NCBI GenBank assembly: GCA_021846845.1
Contig: JAJZWB010000003.1
Coordinates: forward strand, 1-58,404
DNA: 58,404 nt
Source of the DNA: Actinomycetes bacterium
GTDB lineage: Bacteria; Actinomycetota; Thermoleophilia; Solirubrobacterales; Solirubrobacteraceae
Reading direction: 5' to 3'
Program-made: the position numbers and the translations under genes
Notes under the pieces: generated by a model
What the model saw: the letters and a program-made list of their open reading frames with translations, nothing else
Told to the model about the DNA's origin: nothing
The model's database searches: none
Shown here: positions 39,761 to 44,530 of the stretch, piece after piece
How the letters are laid out: every line of letters starts with the position of its first letter
Numbering within the stretch: the first letter of the stretch is position 1

Positions 39761-40183
39761 TCAGCGGACCGCGAGCGTCACGATCCAGACGACCAGCAGC
39801 CCGAGCGCCAGCGCCGCCAGCAGCCCAGCGAGCAGCCGGCCCGGGCTGACGACCGCCTCGGTCGACGGCCGCCCCGGCGCCGGCTGCCCGGCCTCCGCGG
39901 CCGGTGCCAGCAGCTCGCGGGCCCGGTCGGCCGCGGCGGCCGGGACCAGGACGTCCCGCGGGCCCGCGGCTAGGAAGTCGGGCACGTCGAAGCCCGCGCT
40001 GCGACGCAGCAGGCTGGGCACGCCGCGCTCCAGCAGCAGCGCCTGGATCAGCTCCGCCTCGGCCCCGTTGGCCGCTCGCGCCACCCGCGTCAGCTCGCCC
40101 GCCGTCAGCGGCGGGCTGACCTTCAGCGCTCGCTCGTGGCGGTCCGACACCCTGCCGGTGCTGCCGCCGCCGGCGGGCGCCAT
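39761..40183 (-). CDS. DUF2007-like putative signal-transducing protein with C-terminal membrane helix
   Basis: The 140-aa protein has a central domain of about 65 residues (TRVARAANGAEAELIQALLL, GVPSLLRRSAGFDVPDF, PRDVLVPAAAADRARELL) like DUF2007. In other proteins this is a small alpha-beta domain at the end of regulators. A C-terminal helix (about residues 114-138) anchors it to the membrane. The ATG lies inside the stop codon of the JAMM protease gene (TGATG), so the two are coupled. Its role in the cysteine cluster is unknown. The domain call is moderate; the membrane helix is clear. Confidence 0.7.
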   Translation of the reverse strand: MAPAGGGSTGRVSDRHERALKVSPPLTAGELTRVARAANGAEAELIQALLLERGVPSLLRRSAGFDVPDFLAAGPRDVLVPAAAADRARELLAPAAEAGQPAPGRPSTEAVVSPGRLLAGLLAALALGLLVVWIVTLAVR

Positions 40184-40578
40184 CACACGACCTCTAGCTG
40201 CGCCTCGCTGACGTGGCCGTCGCTGATCTCGTACGCCCGCACCTCGGGCTCGTCTCCCGCCAGCCCGACGATGATCCAGATCACGCCCGGCCACGGCCTG
40301 GAGAAGTTGATGTCCGTCTGCGACGGGTATGGCTCGCTGCGCGTGTGCGAGTGGTAGATCGCGCCCAGCTCCAGGCCCGCGTCCTCGATCTCGGTGTGGA
40401 CCCGCAGCTGCTCGGTCGGGTCCATCACGAACCGCAGCGGACTCGCCTCCGCATTGGTGACCGGGTAGACCCGAACCGCGCGATCGTCCTCGGTGGCGAC
40501 GATCCCGCAGCACTCGTCGGGCGCCAGCGCCCGCGCGTGTTCCACGATCTGGTCATGCAGAGAGCGTTCGATGCGCAT
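40183..40578 (-). CDS. mec: JAMM/MPN+ metalloprotease (Mec-like CysO-cysteine peptidase)
   Basis: The 131-aa zinc peptidase has all JAMM ligands: Glu22 (PDECCGI), His76 and His78 (YHSHTRS), Ser86 and Asp89 in the HxHx7Sx2D pattern. In Mycobacterium the homologous Mec cleaves cysteine from CysO-Cys. Here it has a second plausible job, trimming the Ala-Arg cap from the CysO-like carrier. A TAGGCT hexamer 8 nt before the ATG suggests its own leaderless promoter rather than only read-through from cysM. It is coupled to the DUF2007-like gene downstream. Confidence 0.92.
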   Translation of the reverse strand: MRIERSLHDQIVEHARALAPDECCGIVATEDDRAVRVYPVTNAEASPLRFVMDPTEQLRVHTEIEDAGLELGAIYHSHTRSEPYPSQTDINFSRPWPGVIWIIVGLAGDEPEVRAYEISDGHVSEAQLEVV

Positions 40579-40586
40579 CGCAGCCG

Positions 40587-40770: not shown

Positions 40771-41409
40771 TCACTGAACTCCCTGCACGAGGCCGTACGG
40801 CGCAGCGGAGCCGAGCTTGTGGGGCGGCAGCAGCAGCCTCAGCACGGCGTCGTGCTGAGCCCCCGTCGCCATGATCTGCGCGCTCAGCTCGACCAGCGCC
40901 GGCTCGGACAGCTTCAGCAGCGCGACGAAGTGAGCCCCGATCACGACCTGCTCCATCGACAGCAGGAGGCGCAGCGCGTCCTGATCGCCGCGCAGATGCC
41001 CCAGGCGACCGCCGACGCGGCGCCGAGCGAGGAACCGGTTGGCCTGCGAGACGCTCGCAGGCCCTGGCGGGAGCGTTGCGCCCCGCGCTGCCAGCCGGGC
41101 TTCGAGCGCGGCCACGTGCGCCTCGACGTGGCCCTCGAACGGAGCGATCGCCCGCCGTGCGTCGGGCCTCAGGATCGTGGAGGAGAGCACCTGGCGATAG
41201 CAGTACTCGAGCAGCAGCTCAACCCGGACCAGGCGCTGCAGCCGGTCGATCGTCGCGCTCGCGGCGGGTACCGCGACCGCGGCTGAGGCGGGCGCCACCC
41301 CGCCCGCGCCCGGCGCCGCGGCCGCCGCCAGCGCCGCCGACGCCGTCCTCGCGGCGGCGCCGCGGAGAAGCTGGCGCCGGGTCTGAGGCTCTGGCGGGGG
41401 CAAGATCAC
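40771..41409 (-). CDS. Tat-exported ferritin-like domain protein (second of pair)
   Basis: The 212-aa protein begins with a twin-arginine signal (TRRQLLRGAAART and an Ala-rich hydrophobic stretch to about residue 55). A four-helix ferritin-like fold follows. Candidate metal-ligand helices are RVELLLEYCYRQVL, FEGHVEAHVAALEA, LLSMEQVVIGAHFV and ATGAQHDAVL, in the Glu-to-Glu/His pattern of the Ferritin_2/DUF4439 group. Export with cofactor or partner is expected of Tat substrates. The start overlaps the stop of the first ferritin-like gene by 4 bp. Function is unknown; its location inside a cysteine cluster is striking. Confidence 0.8.
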   Translation of the reverse strand: MILPPPEPQTRRQLLRGAAARTASAALAAAAAPGAGGVAPASAAVAVPAASATIDRLQRLVRVELLLEYCYRQVLSSTILRPDARRAIAPFEGHVEAHVAALEARLAARGATLPPGPASVSQANRFLARRRVGGRLGHLRGDQDALRLLLSMEQVVIGAHFVALLKLSEPALVELSAQIMATGAQHDAVLRLLLPPHKLGSAAPYGLVQGVQ

Positions 41410-41963
41410 TCGGCTCCGGTTACGAACGCGCTCGGAACCGGGGCCTGACCCTGCTGGAGGCGGATCAGCGACACGTGCTGTGCGTCGACGGTCAGGATCG
41501 AGGCGACCGCGGCCCGGACCGGCCCCGGCGACAGCTGCGGGATCGTGCTCAGGTAGGTCGCGATCTGCGCGGACTCGAGCTCGTGCACCAGCGCCAGGAC
41601 CCCGGCGGCGTCACTCGGATGGCCGAGCTGGAAGCTGTTGGGCCGTGCCGGGACGCGCCCCCCGACCGAGCGCACCAGCGAGATCAGCTCACCGGTGTGC
41701 TCGAGCTCCTCGGAGAGGAACTGCTGCACGGTGCCGCGCAGCGCGCGCGGCAGGAGCGGCAGCCCGGCGACGTAGGCCGCGACGGTCCGCCGCTCAAGCT
41801 CCAGTGCCGCGAGCAGCAGAGCCAGGTCGCGCTCCGCGACGGCCGGCGCCGGCCTGGTCGAGGCCGGCGCAGCGGTCGCTCCGCAGCCCGACAGCGCCAG
41901 CCCCGCCACCGCGGCCGCGCCGAGCAGCGCGCGCCTCGACGCGCCGCCGCCGTCGCCTACCAC
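41406..41963 (-). CDS. Tat-exported lipoprotein with ferritin-like domain (first of pair)
   Basis: The 185-aa protein has the twin-arginine motif SRRALLG at residues 9-15 followed by a lipobox (LALSGC), so it should be a Tat-exported lipoprotein. The mature part is a four-helix ferritin-like domain with ligand-bearing helices LELERRTVAAY, FLSEELEHTGEL, HELESAQIATYL and VDAQHVSLI. Di-iron binding is plausible. The start overlaps cysM by 7 bp and its end overlaps the second ferritin-like gene by 4 bp, so all three are one transcription unit. No known ferritin-like partner of the CysO pathway comes to mind. Confidence 0.85.
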   Translation of the reverse strand: MVGDGGGASRRALLGAAAVAGLALSGCGATAAPASTRPAPAVAERDLALLLAALELERRTVAAYVAGLPLLPRALRGTVQQFLSEELEHTGELISLVRSVGGRVPARPNSFQLGHPSDAAGVLALVHELESAQIATYLSTIPQLSPGPVRAAVASILTVDAQHVSLIRLQQGQAPVPSAFVTGAE

Positions 41964-42928
41964 CAGACGGTCGAGTCCAGGTTCTCGATCTCGTCCACGG
42001 GACGGGTGTAGATCCCGGACGAGAGGTACTTCCAGCCATCGTCGCAGACGATGAACACGACGTTGCCCTCGTCAAGCTCGCCGGCGATCCTGACCGCGAC
42101 GCGCGCGATCGCACCCGTCGAGACGCCCGCGAACAGACGCTCCTCGTCGAGCAGCTTGCGCGTCCAGAGGATCGCGTCGCGATTGGTGACGAAGATCTTG
42201 CGATCCAGCAGCGAGAGGTCGATGATCGGCGGGATGAACCCGTCGTCGAGCGAGCGCAGGCCCTGCACGGGCTCGCCCTGCATCGGCTCGGCCGCGACGA
42301 TCTTGACCGCGTCGCCCAGCTCCTCGCGGAGCCGCCTTCCGTTGCCCATCAGCGTCCCGCCGGTTCCCAGCCCGGCGACGAAGGCCGAGACCTCGTCGAG
42401 CTCCTCCAGGATCTCCAGCGCGGTCCCGTTGTAGTGCGCGCCAGGGTTGGCCTCGTTTCCGTACTGGTAGGGCATGTAATAGGAGGCGTCCTTCTCGGCC
42501 ATCTCCAGCGCCAGCTCGACCGCTCCGTTGGATCCCTTGGACCCCTCCGAGTAGACGATCTCGGCGCCGTACATGCGCAGCAGCTGGGTCCGCTCGGGGG
42601 TGACGTTCTCCGGCATCACGACCTTGAGCCTGTAGCCCTTGCGACCGCAGATCATCGCCAGCGAGATGCCGGTGTTGCCGGACGTCGGCTCGAGGATCGT
42701 CTGGCCAGGACGGATCAGCCCCTTCTCCTCGGCGTCCTCGATCAGCGCCCGCGCGACGCGGTCCTTGACGGAGCCCGTCGGGTTGCGTGACTCCAGCTTT
42801 GCCCAGAGACGAACCCCGGGCTTCGGGCTGAGGCGCTTGAGCTCGATCAGCGGCGTGTGGCCGATCGACTGGACGATGTCTCCGTAGCGGCCTCCGCAGG
42901 GCTTGTTCTTCAGGCTCGGAGCGTCCAT
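41957..42928 (-). CDS. cysM: CysM-type cysteine synthase (CysO thiocarboxylate dependent)
   Basis: The 323-aa PLP enzyme closely matches the mycobacterial CysM pattern: VRLWAKLESRNPTGSVKDR with PLP Lys55, LEPTSGNTGISLAM, YQYGNEANPGAHY, GLGTGGTLMG and GWKYLSSGIY. In Mycobacterium CysM joins O-phosphoserine with thiocarboxylated CysO. The EPR stretch thought to read the phosphate in that enzyme appears here as EPMQGE, so donor use needs checking. ATG 42928 lies 10 nt after TATACT and is preferred over a start 14 codons upstream, within the promoter. Two ferritin-like genes follow with overlaps. Confidence 0.93.
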   Translation of the reverse strand: MDAPSLKNKPCGGRYGDIVQSIGHTPLIELKRLSPKPGVRLWAKLESRNPTGSVKDRVARALIEDAEEKGLIRPGQTILEPTSGNTGISLAMICGRKGYRLKVVMPENVTPERTQLLRMYGAEIVYSEGSKGSNGAVELALEMAEKDASYYMPYQYGNEANPGAHYNGTALEILEELDEVSAFVAGLGTGGTLMGNGRRLREELGDAVKIVAAEPMQGEPVQGLRSLDDGFIPPIIDLSLLDRKIFVTNRDAILWTRKLLDEERLFAGVSTGAIARVAVRIAGELDEGNVVFIVCDDGWKYLSSGIYTRPVDEIENLDSTVWW

Positions 42929-43033: not shown

Positions 43034-43312
43034 CTAGCGAGCACCGCCCGCCATCGCGGGCAGGATCACGAGCGTGTCGGACTCGCCGACCGCGGTGTCG
43101 AGGCCGTCGAGCACTCGGACGTCCCCGTCGTTGAGGTAGACGTTCACGTACCGGTTCAGCCCGCCGTCGGCCGCGAACAGCTGCGACTGCGTCTCGGGAT
43201 GGGCGTCGGCGAGCGCGCGCAGGACCTCCCCGACGGAGGAGCCCCCGGCGGTCAGCTCCTTCTCTCCCCCGACGGCGGGGCGGAGCACGGGTGGGATTCT
43301 GATCGTGGCCAT
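43034..43312 (-). CDS. cysO: CysO-like ubiquitin-fold sulfur carrier with C-terminal cap GGAR
   Basis: The 92-aa protein resembles mycobacterial CysO along its length: IRIPPVLRPAVGGEKEL at the start, LNRYVNVYLNDGDVRVLDGL, and VILPAMAGG near the end. The beta-grasp fold carries sulfur as a thiocarboxylate on the terminal Gly-Gly. Here two further residues, Ala91 and Arg92, follow the Gly-Gly, so the carrier must be cut before adenylation. The JAMM protease encoded downstream is the natural candidate, as for QbsE, whose C-terminal dipeptide is removed by the JAMM protease QbsD. A TAGGCT lies 8 nt before the ATG. It is 36 bp from the ThiF gene and 105 bp from cysM. Confidence 0.92.
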   Translation of the reverse strand: MATIRIPPVLRPAVGGEKELTAGGSSVGEVLRALADAHPETQSQLFAADGGLNRYVNVYLNDGDVRVLDGLDTAVGESDTLVILPAMAGGAR

Positions 43313-43348: not shown

Positions 43349-44530
43349 TCAGTGTGCGCCCGCGCAGAACGCCTCGTAGTCCGGGAACACGCCCATCTCT
43401 TCGTCGGAGATCGACTCCGGGTCACGCGAGCAGATCGGGCAGTTCGGATCGCGGCGGATCTTGACCTCGCCGAGTGTCGCGGCCAGCGCGTCGTAGAGGA
43501 GCAGCCGGCCGATCGCCGGCTCGCCCTCGCCGAGGATCAGCTTGATCACCTCGGTGGCCTGCAGCAGCCCCATCGTCCCGGGAAGCACTCCGAGCACGCC
43601 GTTGGCGCCGCACGAGGGCGCAAGCTCGGCCGGCGGCGGCGTCGGGAACAGGCATCTGTAGCAGGGCCCGTCGTAGGGCTTGAACACCGACAGCTGCCCC
43701 TCGAAGCCCAGGATCGCGGCCGAGACGACCGGGATCTGCAGGCGCACGGACGCGTCGTTGAGCAGGTACCGGGTGGGGAAGTTGTCAAGCCCGTCGACGA
43801 CCACGTCGTATCCGGGCAGGATGTCCATGATGTTCGCCGGGCCGAGCCGCACGGGGTACTTCTCGACCTTCACGTCCGGGTTGAGCGCCGTGATCGTCTC
43901 CTCCGCCGAGTCGACCTTCGGCACGCCGATCCGCTGCGAGTTGTGGATCACCTGACGCTGCAGGTTGGAGAGGTCGACCGCGTCGTCGTCGACGATCCCC
44001 AGCGTGCCGACGCCGGCAGCAGCGAGATACAGGCCGGTCGGCGAACCGAGCCCGCCGGCGCCGAGCAGCAGCACCTTCGCGTCGAGGAGCTTCTGCTGCC
44101 CCTCCGAGCCCACCTCCGGCAGCAGCAGGTGGCGCGAATAGCGCTCGCGCTGCTCGGCCGTCAGCGAGCGGGGGACCTCGACCTCATACCCGCGGTCCTT
44201 CCAGAGGGTCATCCCGCCGGTCATCGACTCGACGTGCTCGTAGCCCAGGTCCTCGATCATCGTCCTCGCCGCCCAGGCGGACCGAACCCCTGACTGGCAG
44301 TAGAGGATCACGTGCTGGGAGCGATCGCCGACGGTCCCCTCGATCCGCGACTCGAAGTAGGACTTGGGGACGTGCCTGGCCCCGGGGATGTGGCCCGTGG
44401 ACCACTCCTCCGGCTCGCGCACGTCGATCACGACCGCGCCGTTTGAGAGCTGGTCGTGCACGGACGAGGGGTCGACCTCGTCGATCCGGCTCTTGATCTG
44501 TCGCAGCACCTCGGCTCCGGACGGACTCAT
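43349..44530 (-). CDS. Rhodanese-ThiF/MoeB fusion, sulfur-carrier activating enzyme (MoeZ-like)
   Basis: The 393-aa protein should adenylate the carrier C-terminus and load sulfur onto it. An N-terminal rhodanese domain (residues about 20-115) has the sulfur-bearing Cys78 in LYCQSGVRS. An E1-like domain follows (about 125-393) with the ATP loop GAGGLGSP at 158-165, Cys307 in APSCGANG, and zinc cysteines at 290/293 (CYRC) and 364/367 (CPIC). Mycobacterial MoeZ has the same two domains in the opposite order. GAGGAG precedes the ATG, and the promoter carries the shared dyad. It heads the cysteine cluster. Confidence 0.95.
   Translation of the reverse strand: MSPSGAEVLRQIKSRIDEVDPSSVHDQLSNGAVVIDVREPEEWSTGHIPGARHVPKSYFESRIEGTVGDRSQHVILYCQSGVRSAWAARTMIEDLGYEHVESMTGGMTLWKDRGYEVEVPRSLTAEQRERYSRHLLLPEVGSEGQQKLLDAKVLLLGAGGLGSPTGLYLAAAGVGTLGIVDDDAVDLSNLQRQVIHNSQRIGVPKVDSAEETITALNPDVKVEKYPVRLGPANIMDILPGYDVVVDGLDNFPTRYLLNDASVRLQIPVVSAAILGFEGQLSVFKPYDGPCYRCLFPTPPPAELAPSCGANGVLGVLPGTMGLLQATEVIKLILGEGEPAIGRLLLYDALAATLGEVKIRRDPNCPICSRDPESISDEEMGVFPDYEAFCAGAH

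What the first reader, a model, noticed from the sequence alone, without database searches (positions are those of the whole stretch)
43034..43042. CysO-like sulfur carrier is capped by Ala-Arg after its Gly-Gly
The codons before the stop read Gly-Gly-Ala-Arg. Sulfur carriers of the ThiS/MoaD/CysO class are adenylated on a terminal Gly-Gly, and as I recall mycobacterial CysO ends directly in Gly-Gly. This one should therefore be an inactive precursor until the last two residues are removed. The JAMM protease of the same cluster could perform both the trimming and the release of cysteine. A precedent is the QbsE/QbsD pair, in which a JAMM protease removes a dipeptide from the carrier. A processing step of this kind would be a control point for cysteine synthesis.
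Basis: partly seen in the sequence, partly recalled or inferred. Interest (0 to 1): 0.85.

Follow-up and report, generated by a model that had tools for sequence, protein, structure and literature searches.

The report
Cysteine sulfur carrier made as precursor
A small bacterial protein that carries sulfur for making cysteine is encoded with two extra amino acids after its working end; most relatives in the same bacterial phylum carry similar, highly variable extra ends, which suggests the protein is made as a precursor that a neighbouring protease must trim.

Summary
The CysO-like ORF (43034-43312, minus strand) ends ...ILPAMAGG-Ala-Arg-TAG in an intact MoeZ-CysO-CysM-(two ferritin-like)-JAMM cluster. 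Among 133 distinct Thermoleophilia orthologues Gly-Gly never changes; 111 continue past it, mostly by 1-2 residues, and the tail changed at least 90 times on the tree. Ala-Arg itself is in only 8. The first tail residue is restricted (A, R, S, G, T, C, Q, once E; never Pro, Val, Leu, Asp). Elsewhere in Actinomycetota 37 of 50 CysO-type carriers have tails, and in two genomes Gly-Gly runs straight into CysM or the E1 enzyme. Controls end flush: ThiS 29/29, ThrC-linked paralogue 26/30, unlinked carriers 15/17. Best reading: CysO is a pro-protein cut after Gly-Gly, most likely by the cluster's JAMM, whose known reaction (hydrolysing CysO-Gly-Gly-Cys) is chemically the same cut; that also explains free drift of the tail. 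The proposed 'control point' is not supported: the tail is not conserved and often lost. No biochemistry was done. This kind of processing is known (QbsE/QbsD, HcyS/HcyD, MoaD-MoaE); its prevalence in CysO was not found in the open literature searched.

The parts
43043..43312 (-). CysO-like sulfur carrier core, residues 1-90, ending in Gly-Gly
   Evidence: ORF list; PF02597 45.1 bits; M. tuberculosis CysO 3dwg_C E 5.8e-18
43037..43042 (-). Codons for the post-Gly-Gly tail Ala-Arg
   Evidence: Sequence; tails in 111 of 133 orthologues
43034..43036 (-). Stop codon TAG of the carrier
   Evidence: Sequence
43349..44530 (-). E1-like activating enzyme, rhodanese domain N-terminal and ThiF domain C-terminal (MoeZ-like), 393 aa
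   Evidence: PF00899 271.8 bits, PF00581 71.5 bits; NF006444 557 bits over cut-off
41957..42928 (-). CysM-type cysteine synthase, about 323 aa from the ATG
   Evidence: Best solved relative is M. tuberculosis CysM / O-phosphoserine sulfhydrylase 3dki, E 7.2e-96
40183..40581 (-). JAMM (Prok-JAB) metalloprotease, 132 aa from the likely ATG; candidate tail-trimming and cysteine-releasing enzyme; the only PF14464 match in the genome
   Evidence: PF14464 84.9 bits; single copy; E..HSHx7SxxD residues conserved in the homologues; PDB relative JAMM1 5lda E 5.1e-15
41406..41963 (-). Ferritin-like protein inside the cluster, role unknown
   Evidence: PF13668 47.2 bits; present in part of the related clusters
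40771..41409 (-). Second ferritin-like protein inside the cluster, role unknown
   Evidence: PF13668 37 bits

Best explanation
The carrier is translated as pro-CysO with Ala-Arg after the reactive Gly-Gly. An endopeptidase, most likely the JAMM protease of the same cluster, cuts once after Gly-Gly. The freed carboxylate is then adenylated and thiocarboxylated by the MoeZ-like E1/rhodanese, CysM joins it to the amino-acid acceptor to give CysO-Gly-Gly-Cys, and the same JAMM hydrolyses that adduct to release cysteine. The CysO-Cys adduct is a Gly-Cys peptide bond, so a one-residue tail is chemically the same kind of substrate, and two orthologues (L042, L286) encode exactly 'Cys' as the tail. 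Tail removal therefore needs no new activity, and the tail is free to drift as long as its first residue fits the protease. Shown here: the sequence, the invariant Gly-Gly beside a hypervariable tail, restriction of the first tail residue in the class, carrier specificity, clustered intact JAMM. Inferred: that cleavage occurs, that JAMM does it, and that uncut CysO is inactive.
For: (1) Gly-Gly unchanged in 133 orthologues while the adjacent residue changes at least 68 times and the tail string at least 90 times. (2) First tail residue A42 R31 S19 G7 T4 C4 Q3 E1, never P/V/L/D, although about 46% of one-step coding changes from those codons would leave that set, and P (5), L (5) and V (3) do occur at tail position 2. 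JAMM-type proteases are sterically selective there: in an archaeal Rpn11 substrate with natural Cys at that site, Gly speeds and Glu blocks cutting (PMC6043591). (3) Specificity: ThiS 29/29 flush, ThrC-linked paralogue 26/30 flush, CysO only 22/133 flush; outside the class 37/50 CysO-type tailed against 2/17 others, Fisher p 9e-6. (4) Two one-frame fusions, CysO-GG-CysM (L264) and CysO-GG-E1 (L303), each with a JAMM gene adjacent. (5) JAMM clustered in gene order MoeZ-CysO-CysM-JAMM, catalytic residues invariant wherever aligned. (6) Mec+ hydrolyses CysO-Cys (PMC3227635); a JAMM cuts MoaD-MoaE in Deinococcus leaving a C-terminal Gly (PMC8832034). (7) The same genome has a MoaD-MoaE fusion PPVSGG|SVGV, usual in the order, junction first residue S10 A10 E8 of 30.
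Against: No biochemical data. 22 of 133 class members and 13 of 50 others end flush while keeping the same cluster type, so a tail is not needed by the pathway as such. Two paralogue-type carriers without an adjacent JAMM also carry short tails (L283, L284). G143 has tail 'R' with no JAMM found, though its contig ends about 1.3 kb past CysO. The first-residue restriction is looser outside the class (M, V, L, I, H, E also occur). Related sequences are not independent, so the p-values overstate the evidence. A different protease is not excluded.
Confidence: 0.76

Rival explanations
1. CysO is trimmed after Gly-Gly, but by another cellular protease or by a carboxypeptidase; the JAMM only releases cysteine.
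For: Solirubrobacter and Patulibacter loci have tails with no JAMM within 6 kb, although one search finds a JAMM elsewhere in the Solirubrobacter-like genomes. The protease that cuts mycobacterial MoaX was unidentified in PMC4326299.
Against: A carboxypeptidase would have to stop at Gly-Gly after tails of 1 to 42 residues and could not release whole CysM or E1 fusions. Tails are rare on carriers outside JAMM clusters and absent on ThiS.
Confidence: 0.15
2. The tail is never removed: the carrier is inactive in sulfur transfer, or the E1 and CysM of this group tolerate an extended C-terminus, or CysO does something else such as protein modification.
For: Tails are widespread and no processing has been shown in this group.
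Against: The end of the core, LPAMAGG, is nearly invariant with 0 changes at Gly-Gly, and the cluster keeps CysM and a rhodanese-E1. Adenylation chemistry needs a free Gly carboxylate, and changes at the E. coli MoaD Gly-Gly abolish activity (cited in PMC4326299).
Confidence: 0.05
3. The Ala-Arg cap is a dedicated regulatory switch: trimming is rate-limiting and regulated, and so controls cysteine synthesis.
For: Only that a precursor state is implied; PMC4326299 reports incomplete cleavage of MoaX in M. smegmatis.
Against: Ala-Arg in 8 of 133 orthologues, 49 distinct tail states counting 'none', tail presence changed at least 16 times on the tree, flush carriers in otherwise similar clusters. 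CysO is recycled, so one cut per molecule is unlikely to limit flux.
Confidence: 0.08
4. Sequencing, assembly or annotation artefact.
For: The window genome is a draft in 219 contigs.
Against: The same feature in isolates and complete chromosomes (for example L015, L016, L042, L063, L068) and in dozens of independent assemblies.
Confidence: 0.01

Closest known systems
Mycobacterium tuberculosis CysO / CysM / MoeZ / Mec+ cysteine pathway
   Same: Same four activities; carrier and CysM are the best solved relatives; JAMM clustered with them; the protease hydrolyses CysO-Cys (PMC3227635).
   Different: Mycobacterial CysO ends flush at Gly-Gly (3dwg_C); here the gene encodes Ala-Arg after it. The window E1 has the rhodanese domain N-terminal. 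The gene order differs and two ferritin-like genes sit inside.
QbsE/QbsD of Pseudomonas thioquinolobactin synthesis
   Same: JAMM protease removes two residues after the carrier Gly-Gly (from memory; paper not held).
   Different: Siderophore pathway with a single defined Cys-Phe tail (from memory); here cysteine synthesis with an evolutionarily variable tail.
HcyS/HcyD of Wolinella succinogenes methionine synthesis
   Same: From memory of Krishnamoorthy and Begley 2011 (listed in the references of PMC5764234): one JAMM-type metalloprotease both removes a C-terminal Ala and releases the amino acid, the dual role proposed here.
   Different: Homocysteine rather than cysteine; different acceptor enzyme and an E1 without rhodanese.
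JAMM-processed MoaD-MoaE (Deinococcus DRJAMM) and cleaved M. tuberculosis MoaX
   Same: Cut after Gly-Gly to free a sulfur-carrier C-terminus (PMC8832034; PMC4326299, Gly82-Ser83). The window genome also has such a fusion.
   Different: There the sequence after Gly-Gly is a needed enzyme; here it is a short disposable tail.
Archaeal Ub/SAMP precursors processed by CsRpn11/CsJAMM
   Same: Ub-fold precursor with residues after Gly-Gly removed by a JAMM enzyme, with steric limits on the residues after the cut (PMC6043591).
   Different: Ubiquitin-type system, not cysteine synthesis.
Iyer, Burroughs and Aravind 2006 operon classes 4c and 4d (PMC1779556)
   Same: Describe ThiS/MoaD + E1-rhodanese + JAB + cysteine synthase operons in actinobacteria and suggest JAB could free ThiS/MoaD from fusions.
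   Different: The passages read do not report post-Gly-Gly tails on the cysteine-operon carrier; they call the JAB link with the siderophore-type operons 'more mysterious'.

Membership tests
CysO-type sulfur carrier | ThiS/MoaD beta-grasp family protein | tested here: met
   PF02597 45.1 bits over cut-off 22.5; Mtb CysO E 5.8e-18
CysO-type sulfur carrier | Clustered with CysM, a MoeZ-like E1-rhodanese and a JAMM protease | tested here: met
CysO-type sulfur carrier | Encoded protein ends directly in Gly-Gly, as in M. tuberculosis | tested here: not met
   Ends Gly-Gly-Ala-Arg; 111 of 133 orthologues likewise extended. This lowers 'identical to Mtb CysO', not 'orthologue of it': the flush end varies within the family and so is not truly defining.
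CysO-type sulfur carrier | Forms a C-terminal thiocarboxylate and a CysO-Cys adduct | not testable with these tools
   Needs biochemistry
JAMM-processed pro-carrier (works like QbsE/HcyS) | Residues encoded after an invariant Gly-Gly | tested here: met
JAMM-processed pro-carrier (works like QbsE/HcyS) | JAMM protease with intact catalytic motif in the same cluster | tested here: met
JAMM-processed pro-carrier (works like QbsE/HcyS) | Observed removal of the tail by that JAMM | not testable with these tools
   Needs mass spectrometry
QbsE / HcyS families proper | Siderophore (QbsE) or O-acetylhomoserine/sulfate-reduction (HcyS) gene context | tested here: not met
   Window cluster carries a CysM-type synthase and E1-rhodanese; not filed there
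SAMP1 (NF041918 equivalog) | Score over the curated cut-off of 60 bits | tested here: inconclusive
   60 bits printed against cut-off 60; fold-level similarity, context points to CysO
Haloferax-type desampylase (NF041370) | JAMM scores over the curated cut-off of 130 bits | tested here: not met
   81.7 bits; filed only as Prok-JAB/JAMM

The most novel reading that the evidence does not exclude
Across Actinomycetota the cysteine sulfur carrier is by default a ubiquitin-like pro-protein whose tail drifts almost neutrally because its protease already has to cut the chemically equivalent Gly-Gly-Cys bond in every catalytic cycle. In Solirubrobacterales one JAMM gates both cysteine synthesis (pro-CysO) and molybdopterin synthesis (MoaD-MoaE fusion). 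The flush M. tuberculosis CysO would then be the minority form, and occasional stop loss produces carrier-enzyme fusions, as with ubiquitin.
Probability: 0.45. Interest if true: 0.65.

Novelty: new variant of a known kind. Interest (0 to 1): 0.52.

Why it matters
If right, the textbook mycobacterial CysO is an unrepresentative, already mature form, and most actinobacterial CysO proteins need a ubiquitin-like maturation cut before they can carry sulfur. It gives the JAMM protease two roles, predicts that heterologous CysO will be inactive without its JAMM or a stop placed after Gly-Gly, and offers a simple account of why tails accumulate on this carrier and not on ThiS. The carrier-enzyme fusions are a natural parallel to ubiquitin fusion precursors. 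All of this is testable with small soluble proteins.

Tried and rejected
A direct test in genomes that keep a CysO but lack any JAMM was attempted and gave no clean answer: nearly all genomes with CysO also have a JAMM, and the apparent exceptions are drafts. G143 has tail R but its contig ends about 1.3 kb past CysO; G273 lacks a detected JAMM and has flush CysO copies but is 88% complete. Fusion conservation was checked: the CysO-E1 fusion is unique to G357 among the family members searched and the CysO-CysM fusion unique to G319, so each rests on one assembly. First-residue restriction was strong in Thermoleophilia but does not hold strictly across the phylum. Papers on QbsE/QbsD, HcyS/HcyD and the Amycolatopsis BexX sulfur carriers were not held, so whether any of them mentions tailed CysO could not be checked. 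Promoter/terminator and tRNA scans added nothing useful. Structure prediction was not run because it would not distinguish the hypotheses.

Full report
Observation. The minus-strand ORF 43034-43312 codes for a 92-residue ThiS-family protein ending ILPAMAGG-AR, then TAG. The named interval is exactly Ala-Arg-stop. The best solved relative is M. tuberculosis CysO (3dwg_C, E 5.8e-18), whose chain ends in AGG. The genes around it on the same strand are a rhodanese-ThiF E1 (43349-44530), a CysM-type synthase whose best solved relative is M. tuberculosis O-phosphoserine sulfhydrylase (E 7.2e-96), two ferritin-like genes, and a Prok-JAB/JAMM protease, which is the only PF14464 match in the genome.

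Orthologues. A scan of GTDB genomes returned 80 loci, nearly all titled Solirubrobacterales, Conexibacter, Solirubrobacter, Patulibacter or unplaced Actinobacteria. With the window, 67 of 81 have residues after Gly-Gly and 14 end flush. With further regions taken from the class there are 133 distinct genes: 111 tailed, 22 flush; lengths mostly 1 or 2, up to 21, with one apparent 53. Ala-Arg occurs in 8, including the window and its closest listed relative L008.

Sharp boundary. On a tree of CysO plus E1, the last two core columns (Gly-Gly) show 0 changes, the first tail residue at least 68, the whole tail at least 90, and tail presence at least 16. The first tail residue is A42, R31, S19, G7, T4, C4, Q3, E1 and never Pro, Val, Leu or Asp. 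About 46% of single-base coding changes from the observed codons would leave that set, and the same reading frame beyond the stops gives 36% other residues, so this position appears to be under constraint. The set was defined after seeing the data, so the small probabilities computed should be read as indicative only. A published archaeal JAMM enzyme shows this kind of steric limit: with natural Cys at that position, Cys-to-Gly speeds and Cys-to-Glu blocks cutting (PMC6043591).

Controls. In the window genome ThiS (C55) and a threonine-synthase-linked paralogue (C132) end flush. In the family, ThiS is flush in all 29 readable cases and the paralogue in 26 of 30, with single-residue tails R, R, S, C in the others. 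CysO against paralogue: Fisher p 4e-13; against ThiS: 2e-18. These treat related genomes as independent.

Rest of the phylum. Among 67 loci outside the class, carriers with CysM, E1 or JAMM neighbours are tailed in 37 of 50; others in 2 of 17 (p 9e-6). Tails range from one residue to 42. Genomes that look like Streptomyces (f30: large, near-complete; the naming is my inference from size and gene order) show 'MA' and a 13-residue tail; Mycobacterium-like ones are flush. In L264 the frame runs CysO-GG-AAHDSILDAIGNTPVV through a full CysM, and in L303 CysO-GG-VQSPIKGAEEVELSNEEIQRYSRH through a full ThiF-rhodanese E1, each with a JAMM gene adjacent. Each fusion is confined to one genome; relatives have separate genes.

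Protease. In the JAMM homologues aligned from these loci, the catalytic Glu, His, His, Ser and Asp are invariant wherever aligned (125-126 of 127). The order MoeZ-CysO-CysM-JAMM on one strand is usual in the order, with or without ferritin-like genes; Solirubrobacter and Patulibacter loci lack CysM and JAMM within 6 kb, but Solirubrobacter-like genomes have a JAMM elsewhere. In M. tuberculosis the protease Mec+ hydrolyses CysO-Cys (PMC3227635). That adduct is a Gly-Cys peptide bond, so a tail of one small residue is nearly the same substrate and a tail of Cys (L042, L286) is the same. This argument is inference, but it explains at once why tails are tolerated on this carrier, why their sequence drifts, why the first residue is limited, and why ThiS, which has no such protease step, is not tailed.

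Second substrate. The window genome encodes MoaD fused to MoaE with PPVSGG|SVGV at the junction. The fusion is usual in the order and the residue after Gly-Gly in 30 junctions is S10, A10, E8, R1, D1. Deinococcus JAMM cuts its MoaD-MoaE (PMC8832034) and mycobacterial MoaX is cut between Gly82 and Ser83 by a protease unidentified in that study (PMC4326299). The single JAMM of the window genome may therefore mature two carriers; this is a prediction.

What is not supported. A regulatory role for the cap: it is not conserved, is often lost with no other visible change in the cluster, and CysO is recycled so it needs one cut per molecule. Whether cleavage happens at all was not tested.

Relation to the known. 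Iyer and colleagues (PMC1779556) described the JAB/E1/ThiS-MoaD/cysteine synthase operons and suggested JAB could free carriers from fusions; the passages I read do not mention tails. QbsE/QbsD and HcyS/HcyD are recalled precedents for JAMM trimming of residues after Gly-Gly; the papers were not held. I therefore rate this a new variant of a known kind, with the caveat that subscription papers may already note tailed CysO.

Noticed in passing
L004 (G000:C61:33701-34318), protein P0001: MoaD-MoaE fusion with an internal Gly-Gly at the junction (PPVSGG|SVGV); usual across the order, with variable residues after the invariant Gly-Gly.
   Followed up: partly
L264 (G319:C157): Single open frame joining CysO to CysM across Gly-Gly with no stop; JAMM gene adjacent; separate genes in the two relatives searched.
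   Followed up: partly
L303 (G357:C1, CysO match 143532-143801, minus strand): Single 505-codon frame joining CysO to a ThiF-rhodanese E1 across Gly-Gly; unique in the family members searched.
   Followed up: partly
window 40771-41963: Two ferritin-like genes sit between CysM and JAMM; found in a subset of related clusters, function in the cluster unknown.
   Followed up: no
window 43349-44530: The E1 has its rhodanese domain at the N-terminus, unlike the ThiF-then-rhodanese order of mycobacterial MoeZ.
   Followed up: no
window 39761-40177: Small DUF2007 gene just downstream of the JAMM on the same strand.
   Followed up: no
L276, tail region of the CysO frame: A 42-residue CysO tail contains a duplicated stretch (SEHAPRHLSAGGA twice), suggesting tail growth by duplication.
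   Followed up: no
L086 (CAMDBT010000006.1): Record titled Bifidobacterium breve encodes a Solirubrobacterales-type CysO cluster; the title is probably wrong.
   Followed up: no
G335 (Mycobacterium-like family f35): No JAMM match, and not among the genomes listed with a CysO match, unlike its listed family members; possible joint loss.
   Followed up: no
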